This document shows, piece after piece, positions 28,504 through 44,814 of a DNA stretch of 44,814 bases. A program made the translations under genes and the position numbers. Under the pieces are notes generated by a model. The model was not told the DNA's origin. It saw only the letters and a list, made by a program, of their open reading frames with translations, and ran no database searches. The stretch is from Desulfobacterota bacterium AH_259_B03_O07 (GTDB taxonomy: Bacteria > Desulfobacterota_D > UBA1144 > Nemesobacterales > CSP1-2), in assembly GCA_027717645.1 (NCBI GenBank), contig JALLOG010000012.1:1-44814 (forward strand), read 5' to 3'. How positions within the stretch are numbered: position 1 is the first letter of the stretch; every line of letters begins with the position of its first letter.

Positions 28504-30072
28504 ATGCAAACAGGTTTATTTATGAATGACATTGAGAAAAGGCTTTGGGAGTCGGCGGATCAGTTGAGGGCTAATTCCAAGCTCAAATCGTCGGAATATT
28601 CAGTACCAGTTTTGGGATTGATCTTCCTCCGTTATGCTGACCATAAGTTCACTGTTGCAAAAGAAGTAATAGAAAAGAAGTTTATGGAATCAGGAAGCCG
28701 GAGGACTATTTCTAAAGCAGATTATCACGCGAGAGGAGTTCTTTACCTTCCAGAAAAGGCTCGTTTTTCAACTCTACTAAACCTACCAGAGGGTGAAAAT
28801 ATTGGAAGGTTTATTAATGATGCGATGAGGGAAATCGAGGCTGAGAATGAAGACCTGAAAGATGTACTTCCAAAGACTTATAACAGGCTTGAAAATGATG
28901 TCCTTGTTACATTGCTCAAAATCTTTTCAAGCATTCCGATGGATCTTGAAGGGGATGTGTTTGGAAAAATTTATGAATATTTTCTCGGCAAGTTTGCAAT
29001 GGCCGAAGGACAGCGTGGAGGTGAGTTTTTCACTCCTACTTCTTTAGTAAAGCTGATTGTCGAGGTTATAGAGCCCTATCATGGAAGGATCTACGATCCG
29101 GCTTGTGGTTCAGGAGGTATGTTTGTTCAGAGTGCTAAATTTGTTGAAAGACACAAGAAGAATCCAAGCTCTGAAATTTCTGTTTACGGGCAAGAGAAAA
29201 CGGCAGAAATTGTGAGGCTCTGTAAGATGAATCTTGCTGTTCATGGTTTGTCTGGAGATATTCAACAAGGAAATACTTATTACGAGGATATACATAATTC
29301 TCCCGATAAGTTTGATTTTATGATGGCTAATCCTCCTTTTAACGTGAATGGAGTCGATAAAGAGAAGATTAGAGACGACAGGCGCTTTCTATTTGGCATT
29401 CCAAGACCTGATAATGCGAATTATCTCTGGATTCAGATTTTTCTTAGTGCTTTAAATGATAACGGTAGAGCAGGTTTCGTAATGGCAAACTCGGCAAGTG
29501 ATGCTAGACAATCGGAATTAGAAATCAGAAAACAAATTATAGAGGATAATTTAGCAGATGTAATGATATCAATCGGTTCAAATTTCTTTTACACCGTAAC
29601 ACTTCCATGCACATTATGGTTCTTTGATAAAGGGAAGAAGAATACAGACCGAAAAGATAAAGTGCTTTTTCTTGATGCCAGAAATATCTATAACCAAATC
29701 GACCGTGCACACAGAGAATTCACTCCTGGACAAATAGAGTTTATTTCAAATATTGTACGATTATATAGAGGTGAAAACATAGAGACAGGTTTGGGGAGTG
29801 AAAAGTTGATGGTCGAAAATTTCCAGGATGGAAGATATAAAGACATCCCTGGACTATGTAAAGTCGCAACTTTAGATGAAATACTAGAGCAGGGCTATTC
29901 ACTCAACCCGGGACGTTATGTTGGGGTGTCTCAAGTTAAAGAAGACGATTCAGATTTCTATGTAAAATTGGAAGAACTGAATGAAGAACTTGAACAGCTA
30001 AATGTTGAGGCCAGGGAATTCGAGGATAACATATCAATTAATATGTCTAGTTTGCTCAATAACAAAGTCTAA
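28504..30072 (+). CDS. hsdM: Type I restriction-modification DNA methyltransferase HsdM
   Basis: HsdM methylates adenine in the HsdS-defined target and forms the M2S core. SAM-binding motif I is [10 protein letters not shown] (198-207), catalytic motif IV is NPPF (276-279), and the [14 protein letters not shown] segment precedes them. The N-terminal helical domain ([11 protein letters not shown]) is typical, as is the 522-residue length. hsdS starts 3 bases after its stop, so they are one operon. This part looks intact. Confidence 0.95.
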
Positions 30073-30075
30073 TAA

Positions 30076-31338
30076 ATGCTTCGGTTAGAATGGGACGAGA
30101 GAAAATTAAATGAATTAGGTTTTGTCGGTAGAGGGAAGTCGAAACACCGTCCTAGAAATCACCCATCTTTATATGGAGGAAAATATCCTTTTATTCAAAC
30201 TAGCGATGTAAAAACCGCTAATATGTATATAAGTAACTATACACAAACATATAATGAAAACGGTTTAGCTCAAAGTAAATTATGGAACCCAGGCACACTT
30301 TGTATAACGATAGCAGCCAATATAGCTGAAACAGCGATATTAAAAATTAAAGCTTGCTTTCCAGATAGTATTGTTGGTTTTATTGCTGATCCTGAAAAAG
30401 CTGATGTTAGGTTTATTAAATACTATGTAGATTACATTAAGTTAAAAATGCAAAATGTTTCTAAGGGAACCACACAAGATAATTTAAGTTTAGATAAACT
30501 TCTAAGTTTAGATTTTTTAGTTCCGCTCCTCCCAATCCAACGCAAAATAGCTTCAATCCTTTCAGCTTATGATGATCTCATTGAAAACAACACAAAGCGA
30601 ATAAAGATTTTAGAAGACATGGCACAAGCCATATACAAAGAATGGTTTGTCAACTTTCGTTTTCCCGGACACGAAACAGCAAAAATGGTTGATTCTGAAT
30701 TGGGGAAGATACCTGAAGGGTGGGAGATTTCTGAAACCAAAAACAAATTTGAAACTGTGTTAGGTGGAACTCCTTCTAGGAAAAATCCCGATTACTGGAC
30801 GAATGGAAAAATTGCTTGGATAAATTCTGGAAAGGTTAATGATATTCGCGTTGTGGATGCAAGTGAATTTATAACTCATGAGGCATTGAAAAAGTCTTCA
30901 GCGAAACTAATGCCTAAAAGAACAACTGTTCTTGCGATTACAGGTGCAACTTTAGGACAAGTAAGTCTCTTGGAGATTGAAGCCTCAGCGAATCAATCTG
31001 TGGTTGGTGTTTTTGATGATAACAAGTTGTATAACGAATATATATATCTCAAGTTTTGTGAAATTATAAATAAAATAATACAAAGTGCTGGAGGCGGTGC
31101 ACAACAACATATTAACAAGGAAATTGTGAATAAAACAAAAATTCTTATCCCACCGTTGCAATTAATAATTAACTTTAATACTTATGTCATCCCTTTATTT
31201 GATTTGTTATCTAATTTACTTTTTGAAAAAAAGATATTGGCTCAAACACGTGACCGCCTCCTTCCTAAGCTCATCAATGGTGAAGTTGATGTTGAAAACT
31301 TGGATGTAAAGGAAATTTTAGATGAACGAGCAATTTAA
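30076..31338 (+). CDS. hsdS: Type I restriction-modification specificity subunit HsdS
   Basis: HsdS sets the DNA target through two recognition domains. TRD1 spans roughly residues 5-165 and TRD2 220-385, separated by the conserved helical spacer PIQRKIASILSAYDDLIENN to EWFVNFRFPGHE. The second half begins GKIPEGWEI and ends with another helix RDRLLPKLINGE, as expected. At 420 residues it is full length. It overlaps the next gene by 17 bases. The bipartite target cannot be read from sequence. Confidence 0.93.
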   Translation: MLRLEWDERKLNELGFVGRGKSKHRPRNHPSLYGGKYPFIQTSDVKTANMYISNYTQTYNENGLAQSKLWNPGTLCITIAANIAETAILKIKACFPDSIVGFIADPEKADVRFIKYYVDYIKLKMQNVSKGTTQDNLSLDKLLSLDFLVPLLPIQRKIASILSAYDDLIENNTKRIKILEDMAQAIYKEWFVNFRFPGHETAKMVDSELGKIPEGWEISETKNKFETVLGGTPSRKNPDYWTNGKIAWINSGKVNDIRVVDASEFITHEALKKSSAKLMPKRTTVLAITGATLGQVSLLEIEASANQSVVGVFDDNKLYNEYIYLKFCEIINKIIQSAGGGAQQHINKEIVNKTKILIPPLQLIINFNTYVIPLFDLLSNLLFEKKILAQTRDRLLPKLINGEVDVENLDVKEILDERAI

Positions 31339-31819
31339 TGAATTTGAATGGCTCAAAGAATACACTGGTATACATGAAGATCGGATGAAATTTGAGAATA
31401 TTAAAAATTTCGTTTTCTTCTGGAGCCTATTTGAAACTAAAGTATGTAAAAACAATGCGAATGTTAAAAGCATTTCTGATAGTGTTGATGAACTGGCAAA
31501 CCGAAGAGAATTTATCTTTGAAGATTATAGGGATTTTTTTGATTATTTTAGGGATCGATACACAGACTCAGGAAAAGTAAACGATAGATTTGAAAGTTTG
31601 AATTTTAGAAGACCAGATAAAAAAGAGTTCGTTAAAGATGCCCTTGAAGGTGATATTAATAAACCATATGAAATTATTAAGGCTTTATTGATTATAGTTT
31701 ATAGACTGCGTAGCAATCTTTTCCATGGAAAAAAGAGAGTTGAAACTCTTAATACACAAATAGAAAACTTTAAAATTGCAAACAAGTTATTATCAAAAGT
31801 AATTAAAAGTTTCGATTAG
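31322..31819 (+). CDS. HEPN-like protein of the Type I island (1)
   Basis: The 165-residue protein carries RLRSNLFHGKKR near residue 138, an R-x4-H motif in a helix like the RNase motif of HEPN-domain proteins. The rest is acidic, Asp/Phe-rich and helical (FEDYRDFFDYFRDRYTDSG). Family identity beyond this motif is not certain. It overlaps hsdS by 17 bases and so is translated with it. HEPN proteins in defence islands often cleave RNA to stop infected cells; here that role is inferred from motif and place. Confidence 0.65.
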   Translation: MNEQFNEFEWLKEYTGIHEDRMKFENIKNFVFFWSLFETKVCKNNANVKSISDSVDELANRREFIFEDYRDFFDYFRDRYTDSGKVNDRFESLNFRRPDKKEFVKDALEGDINKPYEIIKALLIIVYRLRSNLFHGKKRVETLNTQIENFKIANKLLSKVIKSFD

Positions 31820-31931
31820 TTGTTAATTTTGTCTGCAACCAATTGTGCATTAGAATCAGTTCACACCATTAGAGGATTATGAATTAATGACTTAAGCATT
31901 ATAATTTTCTTATCCTTTTAGAGTTATATTT

Positions 31932-32627
31932 ATGGAAAGAGAGGACAGCCGTCAGATTTACATTTTCAAATCATATATAAACAGCTTTCATTATCTGTAC
32001 CAAGATGCTGAATATTTCCATAAAATTGCTAAGGACAAGAGTCTATCTGGTAAATTAGATCGAGTAAGGTTCTCAAGGAACGCAATACTTCTATATGTCT
32101 TGAGCCTAGAAGCTCTGGTAAATAGAGCCATAGATTTCTTTTTATCAGGAAAAGCTAGAGATATTATTTTAGAAAGAGAAGATAGATTTTCAATAACCGA
32201 TAAGTGGTTAATATTACCGATATTAATTAATAAAGACGATGAATCAACTTTTGATACCTCAAGATATCCCTGGAGTCACTTCAATGAATTAGCTAAAATC
32301 AGAAACGATTTTGTTCATCCTAAACATGATCGTGTCGCTTTTTATAAGGCAGTATCTAATAAGACACATGATTGTTTGGATTATAATGAAGTCCCAAAAG
32401 ATAGTGATATTAAAGAAACAGATATAGTCTATAGAAATACAAGAATTCCAAAAGATCCTTACTGTTTATTGCCACATCACACAGACACGGTTAAAAAGAT
32501 TGTAGATGATATTATTGACAATCTGGATAAATTATTAGAAGGGAAAATCAAAAAAGATAATTGGTTGCATTCGGATGCATTCCAATTGATATATCCAAAA
32601 GGTGCAAAAATTAATGACATCAACTAA
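31932..32627 (+). CDS. HEPN-like protein of the Type I island (2)
   Basis: The 231-residue protein also has an R-x4-H motif, RNDFVHP in LAKIRNDFVHPKHDR near residue 124, with an upstream helix RFSRNAILLYVLSLEALVNR, the usual HEPN/Apea-like layout. It shows no clear similarity to the neighbouring HEPN gene outside this motif. It is separated by 112 bases and may have its own start signals (no strong ribosome site). Together the two form a tandem of possible RNase effectors between hsdS and hsdR. Confidence 0.65.
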   Translation: MEREDSRQIYIFKSYINSFHYLYQDAEYFHKIAKDKSLSGKLDRVRFSRNAILLYVLSLEALVNRAIDFFLSGKARDIILEREDRFSITDKWLILPILINKDDESTFDTSRYPWSHFNELAKIRNDFVHPKHDRVAFYKAVSNKTHDCLDYNEVPKDSDIKETDIVYRNTRIPKDPYCLLPHHTDTVKKIVDDIIDNLDKLLEGKIKKDNWLHSDAFQLIYPKGAKINDIN

Positions 32628-32671
32628 TTTCGTTTCTTCTTTATAGTTAAAAGTTTTTTTGATTAGATTCT

Positions 32672-32839
32672 ATGAGTTATACAAATTTACATACTGAGTC
32701 ACCTCTAATTGAAGAACCTTCTAATGGACTGTTTAAATCCCTAGGTTATCAACATCTAGACTGTTTCTATGAAAAATTTAGTAAAAACAGTACATTAAGT
32801 CGAGAAACTTCTACTGACGTTGTTATTTTACCGATCTAA
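32672..32839 (+). pseudogene. Truncated hsdR 5' end, remnant 1
   Basis: The frame starts with ATG and encodes 55 residues that align with the start of the hsdR at 34922: FKSLGYQHLDCFYEKF versus FRSLGFQHQNCFNERF, then NSTLSRETSTDVVILPI versus NSTLGRETPNDVVLVPI, ending at a TAA. The sequence is diverged from the downstream hsdR at many bases, so it comes from a different allele, not a recent copy. It joins directly to a toxin-like remnant. Confidence 0.8.
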
Positions 32840-33134
32840 AAGAGATCACACAACTGGAGAAAGACTACTAGAAAATAGACGTGCTGAACGCTTAAGCTGG
32901 TGTGTTCCTATTATATGCAATTGAAATGATGATGAAGTAAAAGTATGGGATTATAAAGAATCAACTGGGAGGGTACGCACTTATCTTTGGCTTAAAAACA
33001 TGGATTACGTTGTTGTTTTAGAAAGAAAACAAATGAAGTTTAAAGAAGTCTTTTTCCTAATAACAGCATATTATGTAGATGGAGCATCAAGAAGAAGGCA
33101 CTTACATAAAAAGTACGAAAGAAGAATATTATAA
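32840..33134 (+). pseudogene. Remnant of a BECR-fold RNase-like toxin gene
   Basis: In the other frame, joined to the hsdR remnant, the DNA codes ERLLENRRAERLSWCVPIIC, then a TGA, then DDEVKVWDYKESTGRVRTYL, WLKNMDYVVVLERK and FFLITAYYVDGASRRRHLHK to a TAA. The blocks W-x-x-P-I-I, TYLWLK-x-x-DYVVVL and FLITAYYV match my memory of phage-type BECR (barnase/EndoU/ColicinE5/RelE-like) RNase domains. There is no start codon and one internal stop, so it is not functional. The family call is moderate. Confidence 0.5.
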
Positions 33135-33135
33135 A

Positions 33136-33170
33136 TACAATCGCCGTCCATTAATTTAGGGCGGCGATCG
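33136..33170. terminator. Hairpin after the toxin remnant
   Basis: ATCGCCGTCC and GGGCGGCGAT pair (one bulged base) around an AT-rich loop directly after the toxin remnant. No T-tract follows, so it may be a relic of a terminator or of a mobile-unit end. Confidence 0.4.
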
Positions 33171-33267
33171 ATCTCCTTCCACACATGGTAGATGAGTCTT
33201 ATATATTTATTTTAAACATATTTTATTGTAAATCAAGCACTTTTTATCTGGATATGGATATTTAGAT

Positions 33268-33396
33268 ATGAATATTTACACTGAAGCATATTTAATAGAA
33301 TTACCCGATATTGAACTGTTTAAATACCTAGGCTATCAACATCAGAATTACTTATTATTTTATAGAATGAAATTACATTTTTGGTGTTTGTGTTAA
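33268..33396 (+). pseudogene. Truncated hsdR 5' end, remnant 2
   Basis: A second ATG-started relic reads MNIYTEAYLIELPDIELFKY, then LGYQHQNYLLFYR before diverging to a TAA. It aligns with MYEYTESSLVEIPAIELFRS and LGFQHQNCF of the complete hsdR, and shares the DNA string CTGTTTAAA and CTAGG(C/T)TATCAACAT with remnant 1. So at least three hsdR alleles have occupied this locus. It is followed by the darT remnant. Confidence 0.8.
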
Positions 33397-33445
33397 CTGA
33401 TTTCACAATACAAGGGTACGAATTTTTTTAGAGTGAATAGTTTTG

Positions 33446-33780
33446 ATGAAACGCTCGGATATCGAACACCTATATTACATCACTCACATTGATAATGTAA
33501 TGTCTATTCTTAATAACGGTATCCTGAGTCATAATAAAATTAAGAGCAAATAGATAGAACACAAACAGATTTATGATCCTGCTGTTCAGGAGATAAGGAG
33601 CAACAAAAAGCTACCTAATGGCAAGGGATTGCACGATTATGCAAACTTATATTTTAATCCGAGAAATGCTATGTTGTACAAATGGAAAGATAAACATAAA
33701 CAAAAGTAAAAGAGTTATTATCTGAATCGCCGCTTAAACATAAGGTCTTAATTAATAATGACTTATTCTTTCAATGGTGA
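33446..33780 (+). pseudogene. darT: DarT toxin pseudogene (internal deletion and stop)
   Basis: DarT ADP-ribosylates thymidine in single-stranded DNA. The N-terminus is clear: MKRSDIEHLYYITHIDNVMS, ILNNGILSHN, then a TAG, then EHKQIYDPAVQEIRSNKKLP and LHDYANLYFNPRNAML, matching the YITH and NAD-binding parts of DarT. The frame then breaks and jumps to the family's C-terminal end, HKVLINNDLFFQW, before a TGA. About 110 central residues, including the catalytic Glu region, are deleted. The intact darG starts 10 bases later, as in darTG operons. Confidence 0.85.
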
Positions 33781-33790
33781 GTAGAAAACA

Positions 33791-34906
33791 ATGGCTAATA
33801 AGAGGGTAAGAGTTTTAATAGGCGATATTTTTAAATCTAGTGCCCAAACATTGGTGAACACGGTAAATACTGTAGGTGTGATGGGAAAAGGGCTCGCTTT
33901 AGAGTTCAAAAAAAGATTTCCTGATATGTATAAGGACTATGTTGAAAGATGCAAGAAAGGAGAAGTTAGGCTGGGGCGGCCATACCTTTATAAAAAGTTG
34001 ATTACTCCTTGGATTTTGTTGTTTCCAACAAAGCAAGACTGGCGGTCGGTTTCAAAACTCTCAGATATTGAAGTGGGGCTTAAACATCTGGAGAAAAATT
34101 ATAAAAGCTGGGGTATTACTTCATTAGCAATTCCACCCCTTGGTTGTGGACTAGGAGAATTAAACTGGGATATTGTAGGTCCAACATTATATCGTTATTT
34201 AAACAGATTGGAAATTCCCGTTGAACTTTATGCACCCTATGGAACACCGGTGGGTAAGTTGAAACCTGAATTTCTTGGAGAACCCAGTGAGTCGCAGTTA
34301 ATAGAACAGGCGAAAAGACCCGAGTCGAAGATAGAACCTGGATTCATATCTATACTAGAAGCTCTTAGCAGACTGGAAAATATTCCGTATCACTGGCCTG
34401 TTGGTCGAACAACTTTTCAAAAAATAACCTACTTTGGAACTCTTATGGGTTTGGAAACGGGTCTTAGGTATACAAGAGCTAGTTATGGTCCATTTTCTTC
34501 TAAATTAAAATCAAAATTAACTAAGTTAGTAAACAACGGACTTATTAAGGAACGAAAAATCGGAGAAACCTTTAAGGACGCAAGGGATATTAATAAAAAC
34601 GAAATTAAATCAAATCAGGAGATTATAGATAAGTTAATAGACCTCTTTTGTCGTCTGAATACCAAACAAGCTGAGATGGCAGCAACTGTGCATTTTGCCT
34701 ATTCCGAATTGAAAAAGAGTAATGGAGGGAAACTCAATGAGGATGAATTGTTAAATAAAGTAATAAATTGGAAACATAGACGAAAACCAAAATATAATGA
34801 AACTGAAGTAGCTAATACCATTAGAAATCTTGCAGTCCATGGTTGGCTTGATATCGATCCAGGTGAAAAGATGGCTGAGAAAATTGGCGCCGAGTTAGAA
34901 TTTTAG
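33791..34906 (+). CDS. darG: DarG antitoxin: macro domain plus C-terminal DarT-binding domain
   Basis: DarG reverses DarT's ADP-ribosylation of DNA through its macrodomain and also sequesters DarT with its C-terminal part. The macrodomain (residues 4-155) shows VNTVNTVGVMGKGLALEFK and IPPLGCGLGELNWDIV, the ADP-ribose-binding loops. The C-terminal domain (about 180-371), LSRLENIPYHWPVGRTTFQK to NLAVHGWLDIDPGEK, is the usual DarG extension. It is complete with no stops, although its darT is destroyed. It could still protect against incoming DarT or other DNA ADP-ribosylation; that is inference. Confidence 0.9.
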   Translation: MANKRVRVLIGDIFKSSAQTLVNTVNTVGVMGKGLALEFKKRFPDMYKDYVERCKKGEVRLGRPYLYKKLITPWILLFPTKQDWRSVSKLSDIEVGLKHLEKNYKSWGITSLAIPPLGCGLGELNWDIVGPTLYRYLNRLEIPVELYAPYGTPVGKLKPEFLGEPSESQLIEQAKRPESKIEPGFISILEALSRLENIPYHWPVGRTTFQKITYFGTLMGLETGLRYTRASYGPFSSKLKSKLTKLVNNGLIKERKIGETFKDARDINKNEIKSNQEIIDKLIDLFCRLNTKQAEMAATVHFAYSELKKSNGGKLNEDELLNKVINWKHRRKPKYNETEVANTIRNLAVHGWLDIDPGEKMAEKIGAELEF

Positions 34907-34921
34907 GACAGTAAGATATTT

Positions 34922-36223
34922 ATGTATGAATACACTGAATCATCATTAGTCGAAATTCCCGCCATAGAGCTCTTCCGATCCCTCGGATTTCAACATCAAA
35001 ATTGTTTTAATGAAAGATTTGGAGAAAATAGCACATTAGGACGAGAAACGCCTAATGACGTTGTTCTTGTCCCAATCTTAAGAGAATCTCTCATAAGACT
35101 TAACCCAGAACTAAATACTGAAAGTATCGGTCTAGCTATTGAGGAGCTAGTCAGAGATAGGAGCTCGTTAAATCCAGTGGCTGCCAATCGAGAGATTTAT
35201 AAGATGCTGAGGGATGGTGTGAAAGTTCATACAAGAAATGAGCTGGGAGATGAGGTTGTAGAAACCGTAAAAGTTATAGATTTTGATAACCCTCAAAATA
35301 ATGATTTCTTTTTGAGCTCACAATTCTGGATATCTGGAGAAATTTACAAACGGCGAGCTGATCTGGTTGGATTTATGAACGGTTTGCCACTTATTTTTAT
35401 TGAATTAAAGGCTTCACATAGAAGATTGGAGAATGCTTATCAGAATAATCTAAGGGATTATAAGACCACTATTCCTCAAATCTTTTGGTATAACGCTTTT
35501 ATTATTCTATCAAATGGTTCCGAAAGCAGGGTTGGTACTATAACTTCTGACTACGAGCACTTTAATGAGTGGAAAAAGATTAATAGCGAGGGAGAGGAAG
35601 GTATAGTATCTCTCGATACGATAATCAGAGGGACTTGTGATAAAGATAAGTTTTTAGACATATTGGAAAATTTTATTTTATATCAGGACGGCCAGGGGCC
35701 CAGAATAAAGATTCTTGCTAAAAATCATCAATATCTCGGTGTGAACAACGCCATAGAGTCATTCGGGCAGATCGATGAGAATCGGGGAAAACTTGGTGTT
35801 TTCTGGCACACGCAGGGAAGCGGTAAGAGTTTCTCAATGATTTTCTTCTCACAGAAGATTCACAGAAAGTTTCCAGGGAACTACACATTTGTCGTTGTCA
35901 CAGACAGAAAAGAGTTGGATGATCAGATTTACAAGAATTTTTTAAACGCCGGTGCAGTCACTGAACAAGAAGTTCATGCAGAAAGCCGAGAACATTTGGA
36001 GCAACTACTAAGAGAAAACCATCGAAACATTTTCACATTAATACATAAATTTTGGACCGAAGCCGGAGAGGAATTCCCACTACTTTCAGATCGGTCTGAC
36101 ATTATCGTGATAACAGATGAAGCACACCGTACACAATACGATACCCTTGCAATGAATATGAGAAAGGCTTTACCTAATGCTTCATTTATTGCCTTCACAG
36201 GTACTCCATTGATTGTAGGATAA
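34922..36223 (+). pseudogene. hsdR: Type I restriction subunit HsdR, 5' part up to an in-frame stop
   Basis: HsdR is the motor and nuclease of the Type I complex. This part holds the PD-(D/E)XK nuclease (Asp147 in RADLVG, Glu161 and Lys163 in IELKAS), Walker A HTQGSGKS (296-303), the TDEAH box (398-402) and motif III FTGTP. Reading stops at TAA in GTPLIVG-stop-ERTKTTFGDY at codon 434. Homologues have Glu or similar there, so one GAA-to-TAA change explains it. The frame continues without shift to 38080. Without readthrough the protein lacks the second helicase half and the HsdM-binding domain. Confidence 0.9.
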
Positions 36224-38080
36224 GAACGAACAAAAACTACCTTTGGAGATTACATAAGCATTTACAACTTCAAACAATCAGTGGATGATGAGGCTACAGT
36301 TCCCCTGTATTATGAAAATAGAATCCCTGAGGTTCAACTTGAAAATGAGCATTTCACGGAAGAGTTTGAGGAAATCATTGAAGAATCAATAATGGATGAA
36401 GAGCAGGAAAAGAAATTGGAGAGAGAATTTGCGAGACAATACCACATCATCACCAGGGATGACCGACTGGAGAAAATAGCCGAGGACATCGTTTCTCACT
36501 TTGTTAATCGCGGTTATCAAGGAAAGGCAATGGTGGTTTCAATTGATAAACCAACAGCAGTAAAAATGTATGACAAAGTTCAAAAGCATTGGAAAGACTA
36601 TATTGAGAAACTAAAAAGAGATTTGAATTCGTCCAAGAATATCGAGGAGAAGAAGGAATTGGAAGAAAAGATTAAATATATGGAAGAAACAGACATGGCG
36701 GTTGTAGTTAGTGGCGAACAAAATGAGGCTGAGAGGTTTAATAAGTTGGGTTTGGACATCATGTTACACCGAAGAAGAATGGTAAAAGAGGATCTTGCAA
36801 CAAAATTCAAAGTTCCTGATGACCCTTTTAGAATGGTTTTTGTTTGCGCTATGTGGATGACGGGGTTTGATGTACAGCCTCTGTCGACAATATATCTTGA
36901 TAAACCAATGAAGAACCATACGTTGATGCAAACGATAGCGAGGGCAAATAGGGTATTTAAGGACAAACCAAATGGTCTCATTGCCGATTATGTTGGCATT
37001 TTTAGAGACTTGCAGAAGGCTCTTGCAATATATGGAACAAGTAGCGGAGGTGGGATAGAGCCAGGGGATACTCCTGTTAGACCAAAGGAAGAACTGATAA
37101 AGGCGCTTGAAAAGGCCATTAATGAAACGAGGACTTTTTCTAAGGGGAAGGGTATTGAACTTGAGAAAATTCTTCAGGCTGAAGCCTTATATAAGATCAA
37201 ATACATAGATGATGCCGTAGATGCAATATTGGTTGATGAAGACACCAAGAGAAAATACATTTCGCTATCAGGCAATGTAAGGAAATTATTTAGAGCAATA
37301 CTTCCCGATCCAGTCGCTGGAAATTATAAAGAAATTTGTGATTTAATAAATGTAGTCGCTGATAAGATTAGGTCACTCTCACCGGATGTTGATATTTCTG
37401 AGGTTATGGAAAAGGTAGAAGACCTGCTGGATAGATCAATAAAAGCCAAGGGGTATGTTATAAGAGAGCATAGAGAAAAATATGGTTCCGATTATATAGA
37501 TCTCAGCAAAATCAATTTTGAAGAATTGAAAAGGAGATTTATTAGAGGAAGAAAGCATATAGAGGCAGAACGATTAAGAGGGGCGATAAATTCTAAATTG
37601 AATAAACTGATAAGGTTAAACAAGCTAAGAATTAATTTATTGGAGAAATTAAATAAATTGATAGAGGATTATAATTCCGGAGCAATTAATGTTGAAATAT
37701 TCTTTGATAAATTGTTAGTTCTCGCAAAGGAATTAAACGAGGAAGAAAAGAGAGGAATTGCTGAGAACCTTTCTGAAGAAGAGCTCTCGGTTTTTGATTT
37801 ACTTTATAGACTAGATCTAAACCAAAACGAAAAGAAGCAGGTAAAACTTGCCGCTAAACATTTGATTGAAGTACTTAAAAAAGAGAAATTTGTACTCGAC
37901 TGGCGGAAAAGGCAGCAGACTAGAGCTTCGGTTCTTATTACTATCAGGGATGTGCTCGATAAGGAGCTACCCAGGAGTTATACTCCAGAAATCTATCAAC
38001 AAAAATGTGATCTTGTATATCAGCATATTTACGATTCTTATTACGGAGCAGCGAAAAGTTTGTATGCTAGTTTAATGTGA
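36224..38080 (+). pseudogene. hsdR: Type I restriction subunit HsdR, 3' part in the same frame
   Basis: Directly after the TAA the frame reads ERTKTTFGDYISIYNFKQSV and runs 618 codons. It contains the second RecA-like domain (MVFVCAMWMTGFDVQPLSTI, with QTIARANRVFKDKPNG as motif VI) and a long helical C-terminal domain that contacts HsdM. Codon use and conservation look normal, so the stop is recent or is a sequencing error. A GTG at 36281 gives a 599-residue separate frame, but independent function is unlikely. Confidence 0.88.
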
Positions 38081-38406: not shown

Positions 38407-39546
38407 TTGAAGTTTGAAGATTTTTCTCTATCAGATAGCGTTGTTAAGGCTATAAAGGAAATAGGATTAAGCACCCCTACTCCTATTCAGGAGAAATCGA
38501 TTCCACAACTTCTAAGTGGGATTGATTTAATAGGTCAGGCTAAAACGGGAACGGGTAAAACCTTTGCCTTTGCGATACCAATTGTGGAAAAGATAAATCC
38601 TTCCGAAAGGGTAGTTCAGGGAATAGTTCTAACCCCGACAAGAGAGCTTGCAGTTCAGGTGGCAAAGGAATTTGAAAAAGTCGGAAAGCATAAGCGAACA
38701 TTTGTTGTTTCGATTTATGGTGGTCAGCCTATCAGAAAACAGCTAGCTCAGCTTAGCAAAGGGGTTCATATAGTAGTGGGAACTCCTGGGAGGGTAATTG
38801 ATCATATTAAGCGTCGCACCTTAAACCTTAAGTCCATTCGCTTTACGGTATTGGATGAGGCCGACCGGATGCTTGATATGGGATTTATTGACGACATGAA
38901 ATTTATCCTTGCCCAAATCCCGAAGAAATCGCAAAAAATGATGTTTTCGGCGACGATACCATCACAGATTACATGGCTTGCAAAACGGTATATGAGAAAC
39001 CCGGTAGAATTGAGACTCTCAAAAGATACGCTAACGGTCCCCGAAACCAGACAGCTATTTTACGAGGTGAAGGAGTTTTATAAGTTTAATGTTCTGTGTA
39101 ACTTGCTTGACGCTGAAATGGGCGGATTATTTCTTGTATTCCGAAGGACAAAGTCAGGTGTTGATGAACTTGCGGCCGCTCTCAATGCCAAGCGGTATAA
39201 CGTTCGTGCGCTCCATGGGGATTTTTCTCAAAGAGAGAGGGATAGGGTTATGAGGCACTTTAGAAAGGGTCGCGTTGATATTCTTGTTGCCACCGATGTT
39301 GCTGCGAGAGGGCTTGACATAGATGGTATTACTCATGTCGTGAACTATGACGTCCCTCAGGACCCTGAAAGCTATATACACAGAATTGGTAGAACAGGTA
39401 GAGCCGGGAAAGAGGGCGTGGCCATCACCCTTATAACTCACTGGGAATATAGTGAGCTAAAACGCATACAAACCTTATCAAAAGTTAAGATTGAAAGGCT
39501 AAATATTCCGGCTGTTGTGAATCATTCTCGTGCAGCCAGAGCTTAA
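38407..39546 (+). CDS. DEAD-box RNA helicase
   Basis: An ATP-dependent RNA helicase of the RhlE/CsdA type, remodelling RNA in ribosome assembly or decay. All motifs are present: Q motif with TPTPIQE, AKTGTGKT (I), PTRELA (Ia), TPGR, LDEADRMLDMGF (II), FSATIP (III), and HRIGRTGRAGKEG (VI). It lacks a long C-terminal extension. I choose the TTG at 38407 because AGGAGG lies 5 bases upstream and homologues begin M-x-F-x-D-F; a GTG at 38386 would place the ribosome site inside the gene. Confidence 0.93.
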   Translation: MKFEDFSLSDSVVKAIKEIGLSTPTPIQEKSIPQLLSGIDLIGQAKTGTGKTFAFAIPIVEKINPSERVVQGIVLTPTRELAVQVAKEFEKVGKHKRTFVVSIYGGQPIRKQLAQLSKGVHIVVGTPGRVIDHIKRRTLNLKSIRFTVLDEADRMLDMGFIDDMKFILAQIPKKSQKMMFSATIPSQITWLAKRYMRNPVELRLSKDTLTVPETRQLFYEVKEFYKFNVLCNLLDAEMGGLFLVFRRTKSGVDELAAALNAKRYNVRALHGDFSQRERDRVMRHFRKGRVDILVATDVAARGLDIDGITHVVNYDVPQDPESYIHRIGRTGRAGKEGVAITLITHWEYSELKRIQTLSKVKIERLNIPAVVNHSRAARA

Positions 39547-39574
39547 CAGTCTTTATTTTCAGCAGGGACAGATG

Positions 39575-39625
39575 TATTAGCGCGGGAGCGACAGCGAAGG
39601 CGTCTAATTGAGGCGCTTGTTATGC
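39575..39625. other. Degenerate attC-like site (uncertain)
   Basis: GTTATGC (39619-39625) with GAGGCGCTT before it resembles the R''/L'' half of the neighbouring attC sites read on the minus strand. ATTAGCGC (39576-39583) can pair with GCGTCTAAT (39600-39608) with one extra base, but no good R' core follows. It could be a decayed attC closing the cassette of the next gene. Confidence 0.35.
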
Positions 39626-39628
39626 AAT

Positions 39629-39949
39629 TCACTTTTTGCCAAGCAAATGAATTACTTTACCGGAACTTTTAGGCTTTGTAGTATTTTTTACCTTACTAAG
39701 TAAATGTGGAGAAACATTCCACTTTTGTCCAGAGTCGGTAATGACGGTGACTGTTTTTTTGTTGAACTTAACAAGAGTGCCTATTTGTCTGCCTCGACCA
39801 GATGGTTCAAAGCTGACTTGCTCTCCTGGGCTAAATTGCATCATCTCATTGTGAGTATGCATAGATTCTAAAAATTTAAGCCTCTCAACAATTCTGTGAT
39901 TCAACTCGATTAGTTCTTCTTCACTTAATCTATCGATATCTATAGTCAT
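39629..39949 (-). CDS. Small KOW/SH3-like protein, possible cassette gene
   Basis: The 106-residue product has an N-terminal helix LSEEELIELNHRIVERLKFL and a beta-rich part FSPGEQVSFEPSGRGRQIGT with KKTVTVITDSGQKWNVSP, as in a family of small conserved proteins with a KOW/SH3-like fold that may bind nucleic acid. The basic C-terminal tail KPSSGKVIHLLGKK fits. It is on the same strand as the integron cassettes and lies between attC 40236-40293 and a degenerate half-site, so it may be a cassette gene. Function unknown. Confidence 0.65.
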   Translation of the reverse strand: MTIDIDRLSEEELIELNHRIVERLKFLESMHTHNEMMQFSPGEQVSFEPSGRGRQIGTLVKFNKKTVTVITDSGQKWNVSPHLLSKVKNTTKPKSSGKVIHLLGKK

Positions 39950-40235
39950 AATTTGTCTCGTTTTTTACAGGCGCATAAAATATATTATTAAGTCGATTCA
40001 TGCTTTCTAACCATTTTACAATATCTTCTGCTCAAATTACAAAGAGTAATTTAGGTACTTTACACATGAGAGGATCGAGACTCAACTGGCTGGGCCTAAA
40101 TCTTCTTAAAATCATATGAAGCAAGACAAAATTAGAAAAGGTTGTATCAAAAGAATAGCTGTCGCTTTTTTTGCTTTGATAGGGATTAGTTAAGTCAATC
40201 TTCATGCCAGACCCCGAAAACAGTTAAAGTTCCAG

Positions 40236-40293
40236 GTCTAACGCAAAACTCAGCGGCGCGCGTTAGCGCGCCCGCTGGAGTGCCTAGTTGGGC
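40236..40293 (-). other. Integron attC recombination site 1
   Basis: The 58-bp site has GTCTAAC (40236-40242) and GTTGGGC (40287-40293) as outer cores and an imperfect palindrome CTCAGCGGCGCGCG / CGCGCCCGCTGGAG between them. The extra base lies on the right arm (CTGGAG versus CTCAG), so the L'' side is on the right and the site belongs to the minus-strand gene ending at 40319, 25 bases away. Confidence 0.85.
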
Positions 40294-40857
40294 TTACTGC
40301 TATCCCCTATCGGGCTCTTCAAAGTCTGAATAGTAGAATTATTAACAGGGCAGATGCCAGGCTCGCAAAGGCCGCCCTGATTGAGTTCCATAGGTTCCAA
40401 TGCGGTTCGAAGTCTTTACGAGCCGCTTTTTGCGTTGTTTCATTCATAGCGTCGACATCCAGAGTTTGTAGTTTGTTATTCAGCGGTATGTTAATAGTGA
40501 CGGTCGGCAATTGGACGCCGAGAAGATAGGCGAGTGCGGCGAAGATTATGAGCAGACGCCCAGCTCCATCCAATTGCCCGATGCCAAGCACAGCCGACGC
40601 CACCAAAGCCACAACTGAACCGACCCAAACCAACACAAAAATCGGCTGATTATTCTGGATAACGCGATCCATCACCTGAAAAGCTCGGATAAACTCCCGG
40701 TCATTTAAACTTCTTATGCCTGGCATCACCACTAAGGCAAAAACAAACAGCAAGCCTGCCACCAGGGAACACAGAAATGTAGCCAAGATCAATGCAATCT
40801 GAAAGATTCCCATGATTCATCCTCCATCACGTGAATAATGTTTCGTGTTCCTTAGTG
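40237..40857 (-). mobile_element. Integron gene cassette A (DUF1772 gene)
   Basis: Bounded by the R' cores of attC 1 and attC 2, this 621-bp unit holds a single minus-strand gene followed by its attC, a standard cassette layout. The gene's ribosome site GGAGG lies shortly inside the upstream boundary. Confidence 0.82.
40319..40813 (-). CDS. DUF1772 (anthrone-oxygenase-like) membrane protein
   Basis: The 164-residue protein has four transmembrane helices: about residues 4-30, 58-77, 84-100 and 142-162. It shows the DUF1772 family features: G-L-x-F-V-F-A-L-V-V-M-P-G, the short VTINIPLNNKL after the third helix, and W-x-x-W-N near the last. Fungal relatives act in polyketide oxygenation, but bacterial members are uncharacterised and common in integron cassettes. 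GGAGG precedes the ATG by 7 bases. It is the only gene of its cassette. Confidence 0.85.
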   Translation of the reverse strand: MGIFQIALILATFLCSLVAGLLFVFALVVMPGIRSLNDREFIRAFQVMDRVIQNNQPIFVLVWVGSVVALVASAVLGIGQLDGAGRLLIIFAALAYLLGVQLPTVTINIPLNNKLQTLDVDAMNETTQKAARKDFEPHWNLWNSIRAAFASLASALLIILLFRL

Positions 40858-40928
40858 CCTAACGACCAAGCTCACCTGCCGCTAGGAAGCGCAGCGGAAT
40901 AGCGGTCAGGTGCAGCGCCTTGTTAGGT
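40857..40928 (-). other. Integron attC recombination site 2
   Basis: The 72-bp site runs from GCCTAAC (40857-40863) to GTTAGGT (40922-40928). The arms CAAGCTCACCTGCCGCT and AGCGGTCAGGTGCAGCGC pair imperfectly around a GAAGCGCAGCG centre. AGCGCCTTGTTAGG on the right and, on the minus strand, GAGCTTGGTCGTTAGGC on the left match the known L''/R'' and L'/R' consensus forms. This fixes the orientation: it is the attC of the mcrBC cassette. Confidence 0.9.
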
Positions 40929-40959
40929 GTTTTTTTAATCATCAATTTCTCAACGTTTG

Positions 40960-41007
40960 CCGATATACGAAGTTTTGTGCGCTCTTTGCGCAAAATTTTG
41001 TATACCG
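40960..41007. repeat. Long imperfect hairpin between mcrC and its attC
   Basis: CGATATACGAAGTTTTGTGC and GCAAAATTTTGTATACCG form a stem of about 21 paired positions with few mismatches and a tiny TCTT loop. No T-tract follows on the minus strand. It may be a transcript-stabilising 3' structure or a relic of another element. Confidence 0.6.
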
Positions 41008-41056
41008 GTTGTTGTGCGAAGTGCTTGGGAGGCGGGCTTGCCTGTCTATTATTGCT

Positions 41057-42175
41057 TTACACATGTACGTTCTGTTTTTCAATATTTATTACTTCTAACA
41101 AATCCTTTTCTATTTTATTCCATGGTTGTGCAAGGTCTATTGTTTCCCATTTAATTGTATGACCTTGTATACATGTTTTTTGAGGCAGATGCTTATTTAC
41201 AGTTGGATAAAGCAATATGCCGGTAGCCTTTTTATATTGCTTTGAAACTTCTTCCTGAGTCCGCAGGTATGTATATATTTGAAACATGTGATCGCGATTA
41301 AATGTTAGATTTCCCCATTGACCTTCTGTAATACTTGCTTTTGTAAATTTTGTATCAATTATAATAATTTGACCTGTTTCCTTATGCTGTAGAATTAAAT
41401 CAGGTTTCATTATTGGTATGTAATCTAAACTGTCTTCAGATGGCCAGCTTAAATGAGATTGCGGCTTAATATACCACTGTGTTAAATGATAATTATAAAA
41501 TTCAGCAACAAATATTTCATAAATATTATATAAAATCAGGTCATCCCGATTAATATCCACTAGAGAATAAACCCCTTCCTCTTCACGAGGCATTAAGCAC
41601 CGACATAAAAGATAACAAAGCGACAGCATTAAACTGTAATCTCTATCTCTTTCGTTTATTTGCGTCCGTCTAACTTCATCAGGTTTTATTTCAGTAGTTT
41701 CAATCCATCCCATTTTCTGTACTATACAACGCAGTTCATTCCTTTTTTCTTTTGCTATGTTTTTATTTTTTCCAAAATCACCAATTTGAATCATACGGGT
41801 TAGTATGCTTTTAATTATCTGATTTTTTTTGGTATTTGTTAAGTAAACCTGATAACGTGAAAAAGTGCGTCCATGCGAAAAAGACATTAACTTAAAACTT
41901 TTATCAAAATCAATACGTCCGCGTACGCCATAGATTTCATTCCCTCTTTTACAATAATTGCGGCCAAGCCCAATACGTAAACGCTGCTGAATTTGTTTCG
42001 CTAATATAGATGAAAGTAGAGTATCAAGATTAGGCGCTTTTTCTATTTCTGATTTCCACCGTTTTTTAAGATGTAAAATTTTTAAAGCATAAAGCAGCAT
42101 ATACCATATATTTTCTATTGGTATTCCTGAGTCTGTCTTTTGGATATTTTGACTTTTAATGGCGACATTGTTCAT
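41057..42175 (-). CDS. mcrC: McrC-like subunit of the McrBC restriction system
   Basis: McrC supplies the endonuclease and stimulates McrB's GTPase, cutting modified DNA. The 372-residue protein shows the N-terminal McrC part (PIENIWYMLLYALKI, then RGRIDFDKS and FSRYQVYLTNTKKNQIIKS) and a C-terminal PD-(D/E)XK nuclease, MKPDLILQHKETGQIIIIDT with DTKF, followed by Q-x-Y-T-Y (MFQIYTYL). All catalytic acids and the lysine are present. Its ATG overlaps the mcrB stop by 4 bases (ATGA), indicating translational coupling. Confidence 0.92.
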   Translation of the reverse strand: MNNVAIKSQNIQKTDSGIPIENIWYMLLYALKILHLKKRWKSEIEKAPNLDTLLSSILAKQIQQRLRIGLGRNYCKRGNEIYGVRGRIDFDKSFKLMSFSHGRTFSRYQVYLTNTKKNQIIKSILTRMIQIGDFGKNKNIAKEKRNELRCIVQKMGWIETTEIKPDEVRRTQINERDRDYSLMLSLCYLLCRCLMPREEEGVYSLVDINRDDLILYNIYEIFVAEFYNYHLTQWYIKPQSHLSWPSEDSLDYIPIMKPDLILQHKETGQIIIIDTKFTKASITEGQWGNLTFNRDHMFQIYTYLRTQEEVSKQYKKATGILLYPTVNKHLPQKTCIQGHTIKWETIDLAQPWNKIEKDLLEVINIEKQNVHV

Positions 42176-42969
42176 GGCGCTAGCAATCTATCTCTCAGTT
42201 CATTAACGCGATCAGAGTTATCAAACCAGTATTCCTGTATTAAAGGGATAATTTCTGATTTAACAACATTTTCGTACCAGCTTCGCTCCAGTTGACTGAA
42301 ATCTATTTTATTGGGACAAAAATAACTATGTCCAATCCAGAAATTTGGCCCTAATAAATTATCTTTGCCAATCTCTTCATTTAACGCACTCATACGATTT
42401 CCAATTAAATTAATCAATTCATCTTTCATGTTACGGTCTTTAAGCCATTTATGATAAATTTCAGTTTTATATTTTGGCGTTAAAGAAATAAATGCAAAAC
42501 GTCTCCTGAGAGCATAATCAACTAGGGCGAGAGAGCGATCTGCCAGATTCATTAAGCCGATAATAAAAACATTTGGCGGAATAAAAAAACGTTCCTCGTT
42601 TTCGCGGCTATACATAAGAGGCACTGCATATTTGCTATTTCTTTTATCCGCCTCGATAAGCATAAGTAGTTCACCAAAAATCTGGCTGATATTTCCCCTA
42701 TTAATTTCATCAATTATAAAAACATATTTATTTTCGGGATCGTTTTCTGCTTTTTTACAAAATATATAAAAAACAGCATCTTTAAGCTCAAACATGCCAT
42801 TACCTTCTGCTGCCGGTCTATACCCGCGAACAAAATCTTCATAACAATAAGATTGATGAAACTGCACCATTTCAATATAATCATCATTCTTTTCTTCTAT
42901 AAGAGCATAGGCCAGTTTTCTCGCAAGAAATGTTTTGCCGACACCCGGCGAGCCTTGAAGAATTATATT
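42172..42969 (-). CDS. mcrB: McrB-like GTPase domain (3' part of mcrB, after frameshift)
   Basis: Once past the A7 run, the -1 frame reads IILQGSPGVGKTFLARKLAY, so Walker A GSPGVGKT is intact. It continues to MVQFHQSYCYEDFVRGYRP, Walker B KYVFIIDEINRGNISQIFGE and the McrB nucleotide signature MNLADRSLALVDYALRRRF. This is the AAA+ GTP-driven motor of McrBC. The frame has a TAA directly upstream and its first ATG (42870) lies beyond Walker A, so independent expression would give a dead motor; it needs joining to the upstream part by a -1 shift. Confidence 0.88.
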   Translation of the reverse strand, partial: NIILQGSPGVGKTFLARKLAYALIEEKNDDYIEMVQFHQSYCYEDFVRGYRPAAEGNGMFELKDAVFYIFCKKAENDPENKYVFIIDEINRGNISQIFGELLMLIEADKRNSKYAVPLMYSRENEERFFIPPNVFIIGLMNLADRSLALVDYALRRRFAFISLTPKYKTEIYHKWLKDRNMKDELINLIGNRMSALNEEIGKDNLLGPNFWIGHSYFCPNKIDFSQLERSWYENVVKSEIIPLIQEYWFDNSDRVNELRDRLLAP

Positions 42970-44252
42970 TTTTTATTTTCTATTGCTTCAATAATGTTTT
43001 CGATTTCCTCTTTTTCAAGGAACACTCCTGAATTAATAATGTCATCTATACTATAAAAAATTTTCTCTTGTGCATCATCTGTTTGTTCACCATACCATTG
43101 CTTTAAAAACCATTCATAATCCTGCTGTTTATCATTCCAGATATAGTCGACTAATTTTCTGGAGTATTCAATAAGTCTATAATCATCAGTCAAACTTAAT
43201 CGCCAGATAGTGCTGCGCCCTGTATAAAAGAACCAGTCTTTAGTTTTGAAATCACTATCCCACTCAACCTCAACTGTTTGGCCATCTTGCCTGTTGGTAA
43301 TTATTGTGCCACGAGCCTTTATTATTAATTTTGAGATTGTTCTTCCTTGATTATTAAATGGTAAATTATTTTTTTGTGTGGCCGAAGCTTTAATGGCAAT
43401 TTTATCGCCCGATTTCATCGATTTCACTTCTTCTAATAATTTATCTTCATAACCATTCTGCCACATTCCTTCATCAAGAAACCGTTGTGTCTGATCATCA
43501 CCACTCCAGTAAGCGCCAACCAGCCAGTAATTATTTTCATCCGGCTCAGGAAGCTTTTCTTTTGTTCGTTTATCAGATGTGGCAGCAAGATACGCTTTAT
43601 ATGATAAATCAGGAAGAGATTTAGTTTTTGCAGTAACTTTATTCAGCGTATTAAAATAGAATTTGGAACTAATGCCATCTGCGGGAAATTTAATTTTTAA
43701 ATATGTCCGGTTTGTTTTATCTAGGTTTAAAAACTGTTCAGGGCGCATCCAATATAGTCCCATTGTCAGGTTTGTATTTACTCCCCAAACCTGAAGTGCC
43801 TCATCAAAAGCTTTATGAAAATCTTTATTCTCTTTTGCGTCTTTTCTCAATGCAAGTTTGAACACATGCCATAATTTTGGAATGTCTTCTTTTTTTCTCT
43901 TATATTGATAACCAAAAAACCATGATCTTTGGTTATTAAGTATTGGTATGCCGGTAAAGTCCTCAGGCAATGGACTATTAATATCAAACTTTTTTTTGAA
44001 CTCGGATAAAATAGCAATTCTTTCTTTTTCAACAATTCCCCGGTTGAAAACACCAAAAACTGTAAATGGATCAATTTCTGTTAATAAAAACCTGTCATCC
44101 TGGTCATCCTGGTCATTAAGTGGAGTGACTTTAAGATTTTTCTTTCTTAATACTTCAATAAACTCAATCAATTCGTTTTGACGATTTTCCCAGTCTTCCA
44201 AGTTGTCAGCAAGTTCTTTGTAAAATGGTATCCATGAAAAGTTATTTGTCAT
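42963..44252 (-). CDS. mcrB: McrB-like N-terminal reader part (5' part of mcrB)
   Basis: The 429-residue frame contains an N-terminal alpha-helical region (about 1-230) known from long McrB-type AAA proteins (RSWFFGYQYKRKKEDIPKLW, GLYWMRPEQFLNLDKTNRTY). An EVE-like reader domain (about 240-345) begins NYWLVGAYWSGDDQTQRFLD and runs to GTIITNRQDGQTVEVEWD. EVE/PUA-type domains read modified bases. It ends in IIEAIENKKI-stop within the A7 run just before Walker A. The ATG has GAGG upstream. With the shift, full McrB would be about 693 residues. Confidence 0.88.
   Translation of the reverse strand: MTNNFSWIPFYKELADNLEDWENRQNELIEFIEVLRKKNLKVTPLNDQDDQDDRFLLTEIDPFTVFGVFNRGIVEKERIAILSEFKKKFDINSPLPEDFTGIPILNNQRSWFFGYQYKRKKEDIPKLWHVFKLALRKDAKENKDFHKAFDEALQVWGVNTNLTMGLYWMRPEQFLNLDKTNRTYLKIKFPADGISSKFYFNTLNKVTAKTKSLPDLSYKAYLAATSDKRTKEKLPEPDENNYWLVGAYWSGDDQTQRFLDEGMWQNGYEDKLLEEVKSMKSGDKIAIKASATQKNNLPFNNQGRTISKLIIKARGTIITNRQDGQTVEVEWDSDFKTKDWFFYTGRSTIWRLSLTDDYRLIEYSRKLVDYIWNDKQQDYEWFLKQWYGEQTDDAQEKIFYSIDDIINSGVFLEKEEIENIIEAIENKKI
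42968..42974 (-). other. A7 slippage or indel site in mcrB
   Basis: On the minus strand AAT-AAA-AAA-ATA-TAA is the reader frame; reading one base back after AAA gives AAT-ATA-ATT-CTT and the Walker A. A run of seven A suits -1 ribosomal slippage or transcript slippage, but a one-base deletion from A8 explains it equally. Confidence 0.75.
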
Positions 44253-44695
44253 ATAATTAATCCTCTATTATCTTTCTAAGCTATAGTTTATGCATGATTT
44301 TTAGATTTATATTTTATTTTTATTCTTTTTAACGCACATGTGTCTTTTTAAAAATAGACTTAGCCCCCCATCCTTTCGCACAACGTTTGTGTATATTCAT
44401 TGTTGTTATTTCACAAAATTGGAGGGATAACATCTTACATTTATCATCTTCACTTTGTTCTCGATACACATAACATTATTTATTAAGATGACACATACTT
44501 TTTTACCATTGTATAGTTTATTCTTATAAAATCAAACGACGAATCTATGTTTATCATTACTAATTGCTACATAATAATTGCATTACTAATATTTTTATAA
44601 CTCCTATCAATGCTGTCCAAATCTGAGTCATAAGAGCATTTTCGTCTGTTATCGAGATTCTGAAACTAGCCTGTCCTGATATAGATAAGGATTCG
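44253..44695. other. Leader region of cassette B
   Basis: No coding frame was recognised in these 443 AT-rich bases. The part nearest mcrB carries GAGG before the ATG. No convincing -35/-10 pair was found on the minus strand, yet a leader this long suggests the cassette has its own promoter or lost a further gene. Confidence 0.45.
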
Positions 44696-44767
44696 GTATA
44701 ACGACAAAGCTCAGCCGCAGACAAGCCGCGAAGCGGGTTGGCTGTCGGCTGCAGCGCCTTGTTATGT
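44696..44767 (-). other. Integron attC recombination site 3
   Basis: The 72-bp site runs from GTATAAC (44696-44702) to GTTATGT (44761-44767), with arms CAAAGCTCAGCCGCAGACA and TGTCGGCTGCAGCGCC that pair around GCCGCGAAGCGGGT. The right arm repeats the AGCGCCTTGTTA of site 2. It would be the attC of a preceding cassette whose gene lies beyond the right edge. Confidence 0.83.
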
Positions 44768-44814
44768 CTCTCCTTTTATAGCTAAGCGACGCCTCGCCGA
44801 GGTCAGCCCCTCAG

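What the first reader, a model, noticed from the sequence alone, without database searches (positions are those of the whole stretch)
40858..44696. A complete McrBC restriction system packaged as one large integron cassette
Seen: two 72-bp attC sites (40857-40928 and 44696-44767), same orientation, enclose mcrB and mcrC on the strand expected for cassette genes. Known: typical cassettes are under about 1 kb with one gene; defence genes in sedentary integron arrays are a recent theme, but a multi-gene modification-dependent restriction system of 3.8 kb is unusual. Inference: the cassette can move a full anti-phage system in one step.
Basis: partly seen in the sequence, partly recalled or inferred. 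Interest (0 to 1): 0.9.

Follow-up and report, generated by a model that had tools for sequence, protein, structure and literature searches.

The report
Broken McrBC cassette between attC sites
In a bacterium known only from metagenome DNA, a two-gene restriction system (a defence that cuts DNA with modified bases) sits between two integron recombination sites as one unusually large 3.8-kb cassette, but one of its two genes is frameshifted in this sequence and no working integron recombinase was found, so it is an interesting though probably inactive example of a known theme.

Summary
The attC sites are real. A covariance model built only from attC sites of class 1 plasmid integrons ranks exactly three sites first in the window (40236-40293, 40857-40928, 44696-44767), all on the minus strand, the sense orientation for mcrB, mcrC and the two neighbouring cassette genes. 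The attC-bounded segment is 40863-44701 (3,839 bp). Two claims need correcting. First, mcrB is not complete as sequenced: a 7-A run (8 in a 95%-identical relative) causes a frameshift just before the P-loop, splitting it into ORFs of 429 and 232 aa. McrC is intact. Second, the near-identical copy (MAG CSMAG_2461) has an intact 697-aa McrB but no attC beside it, and homology ends inside the attC-bounded segment, so mcrBC also exists outside a cassette. No integrase is on the contig; the MAG has about a dozen scattered attC sites and only an IntI fragment; relatives have broken intI genes. McrB carries an EVE/YTH-like modified-base reader plus an E. coli-type GTPase. Type IV restriction cassettes are already reported, usually size-reduced; this full-size one is an outlier, probably decayed. 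New member of a known kind, moderate interest.

The parts
44696..44767 (-). attC site at the upstream (5') end of the mcrBC segment; belongs to the preceding cassette
   Evidence: R1 21.2 bits with filters off, 26 bits; R2 46.8 bits; DNA fold z -4.6
40857..40928 (-). attC site downstream of mcrC (the cassette's own attC)
   Evidence: R1 16.3 bits with filters off, 31.3 bits; R2 50 bits; DNA fold z -2.4
40236..40293 (-). third attC site, downstream of the 40319-40813 gene
   Evidence: R1 22.9 bits, best hit of the window with filters off
40863..44701 (-). attC-delimited segment (cassette by anatomy), 3,839 bp from G^TT to G^TT
   Evidence: positions of the R' boxes
42963..44252 (-). mcrB, first part: N-terminal module and EVE-like module (429 aa)
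   Evidence: 95% identical to L039 McrB
42968..42974 (-). A7 run carrying the frameshift (A8 in the intact relative)
42172..42962 (-). mcrB, second part in the -1 frame: AAA+ GTPase domain with P-loop; the first start codon of this frame (42870) lies after the P-loop
   Evidence: AAA_5, 1.5e-18
43089..43538 (-). EVE/YTH-like modified-base reader module of McrB
   Evidence: model pLDDT 92, PDB fold search
41057..42175 (-). mcrC, intact, 372 aa
   Evidence: PF10117 3.2e-24; catalytic residues conserved; E. coli McrC structures matched
40951..41014 (.). long inverted repeat between mcrC and attC; not scored as attC; homology with L039 ends in it
40319..40813 (-). next cassette gene, DUF1772/anthrone-oxygenase-like membrane protein, attC directly downstream
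   Evidence: PF08592 1.7e-16
39629..39949 (-). last gene of the array, 106 aa, no family; only a degenerate attC-like stretch (39544-39622) follows
44762..44814 (-). 3' end of an open frame of a further upstream cassette, its TAA stop inside the R'' box of the attC; the contig ends here
   Evidence: read from the sequence; contig C33 is 44,814 bp long

Best explanation
This is the tail of an integrase-less cassette array (a CALIN) in an uncultured bacterium. One attC-delimited segment of 3,839 bp holds an EVE-type mcrB and mcrC in cassette orientation. Shown: the attC sites and their strand, the gene content and orientation, and the frameshift in the assembled sequence. Inferred: an integron integrase acting in trans, now or in an ancestor, could fold and cut the two attC bottom strands and move the segment as one circle. 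Inferred by homology: in its intact form McrB reads modified bases with its EVE module, forms a GTP-driven ring, and with the McrC nuclease cuts modified phage DNA. It is a large cassette in a lineage whose integrases are decaying.
For: An independent plasmid-derived model finds the three sites, all on the minus strand; covariation. McrC intact with catalytic residues. McrB GTPase matches E. coli McrB (3e-92; TM 0.89); EVE/YTH module by fold. Frameshift: A7 against A8 in L039, all seven aligned relatives in frame. dN/dS 0.14-0.26 between window and L039, 0.22 downstream of the shift, and no second lesion, so the shift is recent or an artefact. Thirteen attC matches at E<1 in the MAG, no intI over cut-off; intI in relatives broken or partial.
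Against: The L039 copy lacks attC sites and its homology stops inside the segment, so capture by IntI as this exact unit is not shown. attC function was not tested. No attI or intI is on the contig, which ends 47 bp beyond the attC. No promoter signal clearly exceeds chance.
Confidence: 0.62

Rival explanations
1. The mcrBC unit was not captured as a cassette. It moved by another route (homologous or illegitimate recombination, or a defence-island element) and landed inside an existing small cassette, or several cassettes fused when intermediate attC sites decayed. The attC sites then flank it only by position.
For: The block shared with CSMAG_2461 spans window 44437-40995 and its ends do not coincide with the attC sites; no attC in that contig although its MAG has attCs elsewhere. 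A 26-bp match begins at GTTATGTG (44477-44452), as if another cassette junction lay there. The HSG9 homologue sits beside lactate-utilisation-type genes without attC.
Against: mcrBC lies in sense orientation with an attC a short way downstream, which a random insertion gives only half the time. The 5' flank of the segment resembles that of a neighbouring cassette. L039 may simply have lost its attC sites. L079 has an attC-like site 245 bp upstream of another mcrB, same orientation (23.5 bits with fast filters; not recovered with filters off).
Confidence: 0.3
2. The frameshift is a sequencing or assembly error, and the cassette carries an intact McrBC system.
For: It is a one-base difference in a homopolymer (A7 against A8); no other lesion and purifying-type divergence throughout mcrB, also after the shift.
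Against: The run is only 7 A, not long for short-read assembly. A second restriction gene on the same contig, hsdR, is broken by a base substitution that is not of the homopolymer type. Several intI genes in the family are broken too.
Confidence: 0.35
3. The A7/A8 run is a switch: slippage in DNA, RNA or translation turns McrB on and off in a cell population.
Against: Only two alleles known, one each; the run is short; the in-frame codons TAA AAA A do not form a canonical -1 slippery heptamer; more distant relatives do not keep the run.
Confidence: 0.06
4. The attC sites are chance hairpins.
For: Single weak hits of the models do occur by chance.
Against: Three top hits clustered on one strand, each with correct geometry and each downstream of a gene; covariation; further sites elsewhere in the MAG and its family.
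Confidence: 0.02

Closest known systems
Integron gene cassettes with defence genes (sedentary and mobile integrons; Darracq 2025, Kieffer 2025, Getz 2025 as cited in PMC12409362 and PMC12444791)
   Same: attC-bounded gene unit carrying an anti-phage type gene in cassette orientation; type II and type IV restriction genes are already reported in integrons
   Different: Reported restriction cassettes are significantly reduced in size; this one carries full-size McrB and McrC in 3.84 kb, with no integrase found and a frameshift in mcrB
CALIN (cluster of attC sites lacking an integron integrase; PMC8618304)
   Same: Three clustered attC sites without intI, with further scattered attC sites in the genome
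   Different: The contig ends 47 bp beyond the last attC, so an intI further on cannot be excluded; off-array single cassettes are unusually frequent in this MAG
E. coli K-12 McrBC (PDB 6hz4, 6ut6)
   Same: McrB-type AAA+ GTPase domain (48% identical in the aligned fold) next to an McrC nuclease, gene order mcrB-mcrC
   Different: The N-terminal specificity part is an EVE/YTH-like module plus a second module of unknown fold rather than the DUF3578 domain; mcrB frameshifted here
EVE-McrB restriction systems (PMC7641849)
   Same: EVE-superfamily module fused to an McrB GTPase, paired with McrC
   Different: Two N-terminal modules that occur in either order among relatives; found here within an attC-bounded segment

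Membership tests
attC site / integron cassette | R'' and R' boxes with AAC/GTT cores, L boxes with an unpaired extra base, hairpin | tested here: met
   plasmid-derived model and alignment
attC site / integron cassette | genes in the sense orientation of the attC, attC shortly downstream of the stop codon | tested here: met
   all three sites score on the minus strand, genes on the minus strand; distances 25 to 128 bp
attC site / integron cassette | ends of the mobile unit coincide with the attC crossover points in independent copies | tested here: not met
   the only near-identical copy (L039) ends inside the segment and has no attC; one copy only
attC site / integron cassette | excision and integration by IntI | not testable with these tools
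   needs a recombination assay
complete integron | intI gene and attI site with the array | tested here: not met
   none on the contig; no intI over the family cut-off in the MAG; the assembly is incomplete
McrBC (type IV restriction) | McrC with DUF2357-type N-terminus and PD-(D/E)xK nuclease residues | tested here: met
   PF10117, NF007277 (below its cut-off), D259, D274, K276 invariant
McrBC (type IV restriction) | McrB GTPase domain with Walker A, Walker B and the NxxD signature | tested here: met
   GSPGVGKT, DEINR and MNLADR all encoded, but in the second frame
McrBC (type IV restriction) | one continuous McrB joining reader and GTPase | tested here: not met
   frameshift at A7 in the sequence as given
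McrBC (type IV restriction) | cleavage of modified DNA, phage restriction | not testable with these tools
   needs an experiment
EVE-McrB | EVE/YTH-superfamily reader fold in McrB | tested here: met
   model pLDDT 92; the only matches at E<=0.001 are MJECL36 and PH1033, then YTH domains, 2eve and THYN1; TM 0.3-0.5, so superfamily level only
CoCoNuT branch of McrBC | NxD instead of NxxD GTPase motif, coiled coils | tested here: not met
   motif is MNLADR, that is NxxD; criterion from PMC11090510

The most novel reading that the evidence does not exclude
A full-size, two-gene type IV restriction system is a genuine movable integron cassette, breaking the reported rule that restriction genes in integrons are size-reduced, and its activity is set by the length of an A7/A8 run between reader and GTPase.
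Probability: 0.08. Interest if true: 0.65.

Novelty: new member of a known kind. Interest (0 to 1): 0.4.

Why it matters
Defence systems in integrons are a current topic, and published surveys, as reviewed in PMC12409362, say they are streamlined to small size, with systems of more than two genes absent. A full-size McrB plus McrC between two well-scored attC sites tests the upper size limit of cassettes and where the line lies between capture by integrase and passive flanking. The nearly identical copy outside an attC context is a natural comparison. The frameshift and the decayed integrases caution that attC-bounded does not mean mobile or functional.

Tried and rejected
Rfam at gathering threshold found nothing in the window, so attC had to be tested with a model of my own. 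A first MAFFT alignment of full attC sites misaligned the loops; I used cores with the variable loop masked instead. Orientation: I first suspected that the genes ran against the attC strand; the position of the unpaired L-box base and the models put both on the minus strand. The 40951-41014 inverted repeat was considered as a second attC type and rejected by both models; it has no other copy in the MAG and none in plasmids. A related end motif and McrC relatives were not found in viral contigs. L093 looked like a second mcrC beside an attC, but that degenerate site belongs to a convergent cytosine-methyltransferase-like gene. The L039 hairpin at 1698-1750 resembles an attC by eye but is not scored. 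PADLOC models do not name McrC or the McrB N-terminus. The promoter scan is hardly better than shuffled.

Full report
What was checked. The window is the whole of contig C33 (44,814 bp) of a 712-contig, 3.78-Mb metagenome-assembled genome. The finding is the last 4.5 kb of it. Reading on the minus strand from the contig end, the order is: end of an open frame whose TAA stop lies in the R'' box of an attC; attC 44767-44696; mcrB; mcrC; inverted repeat; attC 40928-40857; a DUF1772-like gene; attC 40293-40236; a 106-aa gene; a degenerate attC-like stretch; then a DEAD-box helicase gene on the other strand.

attC test. I fetched class 1 integrons from plasmid records, cut out nine attC cores, masked the variable loop and built a covariance model. 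With filters off it ranks the three window sites first over both strands of 44.8 kb, all on the minus strand. Over 917 kb that includes 80 other mcrC loci they are again the best three. A simple geometric rule gives these three and one other hit, against a mean of about 1 per shuffled window. Adding sites from the window and the MAG gives an alignment with strong covariation in the L and R stems; these rows were chosen partly by an earlier match, so the covariation is supportive rather than independent.

Segment. Cleavage at G^TT of each R' box puts the segment at 40863-44701, 3,839 bp. mcrC ends 128 bp before its attC; mcrB begins 449 bp into the segment.

Proteins. McrC (372 aa) belongs to PF10117 and keeps the residues D259, D274 and K276 that form the nuclease motif. 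The McrB GTPase domain is E. coli-like (TM 0.89 to 6ut6). The McrB N-terminus has two modules, which relatives carry in either order. A 150-residue module (239-388) folds with pLDDT 92 and matches EVE and YTH domains best, at superfamily-level TM-scores. So this is an EVE-McrB system, the most common EVE fusion in defence (PMC7641849). It is not of the CoCoNuT branch, which has an NxD motif (PMC11090510); here it is MNLADR.

Frameshift. mcrB is not one ORF. The frame ends at ENKKI*, and the P-loop KNIILQGSPGVGKT is in the -1 frame. The first start codon of the second ORF lies after the P-loop. In the 95%-identical copy L039 the run is A8 and McrB is one ORF of 697 aa. All seven full-length relatives aligned read through. 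dN/dS between window and L039 is 0.14-0.26 in all parts, 0.22 after the shift, and there is no second lesion. The shift is thus recent, or an assembly error; I cannot tell without reads.

Related loci. A scan of named genomes with a McrC alignment found L039 (MAG CSMAG_2461, 95%), L040 (Desulfococcaceae HSG9, 63%) and more distant loci. L039 shares 3.44 kb at 95.6% with the window, but the shared block ends at about 44437 and 40995, inside the attC-bounded segment, and a 26-bp match precedes it at 44477-44452. No attC is scored in that contig, although its MAG has attC sites elsewhere. L040 lies beside lactate-utilisation-type genes (my reading of the ORFs) without attC. So mcrBC of this kind occurs outside an attC context, and the segment's ends are not shown to be transfer ends. 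A weaker attC-like site lies 245 bp upstream of mcrB in L079, same orientation; it scored 23.5 bits with fast filters but was not recovered with filters off, and that contig ends before a second site could be seen.

Integron state. The MAG has 13 attC matches at E<1 on nine contigs, some beside single genes with ordinary host genes between. No intI passes the family cut-off; one N-terminal fragment is on C51. In the same family one genome has an intI with three internal stops and another has pieces. A mobile role would therefore need an integrase in trans, which is inference. The DEAD-box gene beside the array has 72-77% identical relatives in three genomes of the family, so the contig fits this taxon.

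Literature. I found no open paper reporting McrBC in an integron cassette. Restriction and methylation functions in cassettes are long reported (PMC8618304). A review of Darracq et al. states that type II and type IV restriction genes in integrons are significantly reduced in size and that systems of more than two genes are absent (PMC12409362). This case is full size: McrB is 697-699 aa in the intact relatives L039 and L040, with the same domain set here.

Conclusion. The attC observation is right; 'complete' is wrong for the sequence as given; 'movable in one step' is possible but unproven. New member of a known kind, with an unusual size.

Noticed in passing
window 28504-38080: Type I restriction-modification system (hsdM, hsdS, a Macro-domain gene, hsdR) close to the array; hsdR is interrupted by an in-frame TAA at 36221-36223, a second broken restriction gene on this contig.
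   Followed up: partly
G000 contigs C510 (L149), C9 (L150), C91 (L151), C155 (L152), C99 (L153), C707 (L019), C51 (L017): Scattered attC sites and single-gene cassettes between ordinary host genes, e.g. an MFS transporter and a hydrolase on C510; looks like off-target cassette insertion or a broken-up array.
   Followed up: partly
G004:C51:30605-31516 (L144), G006 pieces (L145, L147, L148), G000:C51:1952-2119 (L007): Integron integrases in this family are broken or fragmentary while attC sites persist.
   Followed up: partly
window 40951-41014: Long inverted repeat 43 bp after mcrC, where homology with the CSMAG_2461 copy ends; neither attC model scores it and it has no other copy in the MAG.
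   Followed up: partly
window 44440-44550 and 39942-40055: The 5' flanks of the mcrBC segment and of the 106-aa gene cassette share about 110 bp of similarity (score 63 against 29 +/- 5 in shuffles, 0/500).
   Followed up: partly
loci L072, L078, L086, L104, L105, L113, L114, L117 and others: McrB relatives carry the N-terminal module (1-222) and the EVE-like module (243-382) in either order, a domain swap in the specificity part.
   Followed up: no
L093 1160-2470: A cytosine-methyltransferase-like gene converges on mcrC with a degenerate attC at its 3' end: a possible methylase cassette beside a modification-dependent restriction gene.
   Followed up: no
L079 1682-1757: attC-like site 245 bp upstream of another mcrBC (Clostridia MAG T3Sed10_282), same orientation; scored with fast filters only; the contig ends before a downstream site could be seen.
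   Followed up: partly
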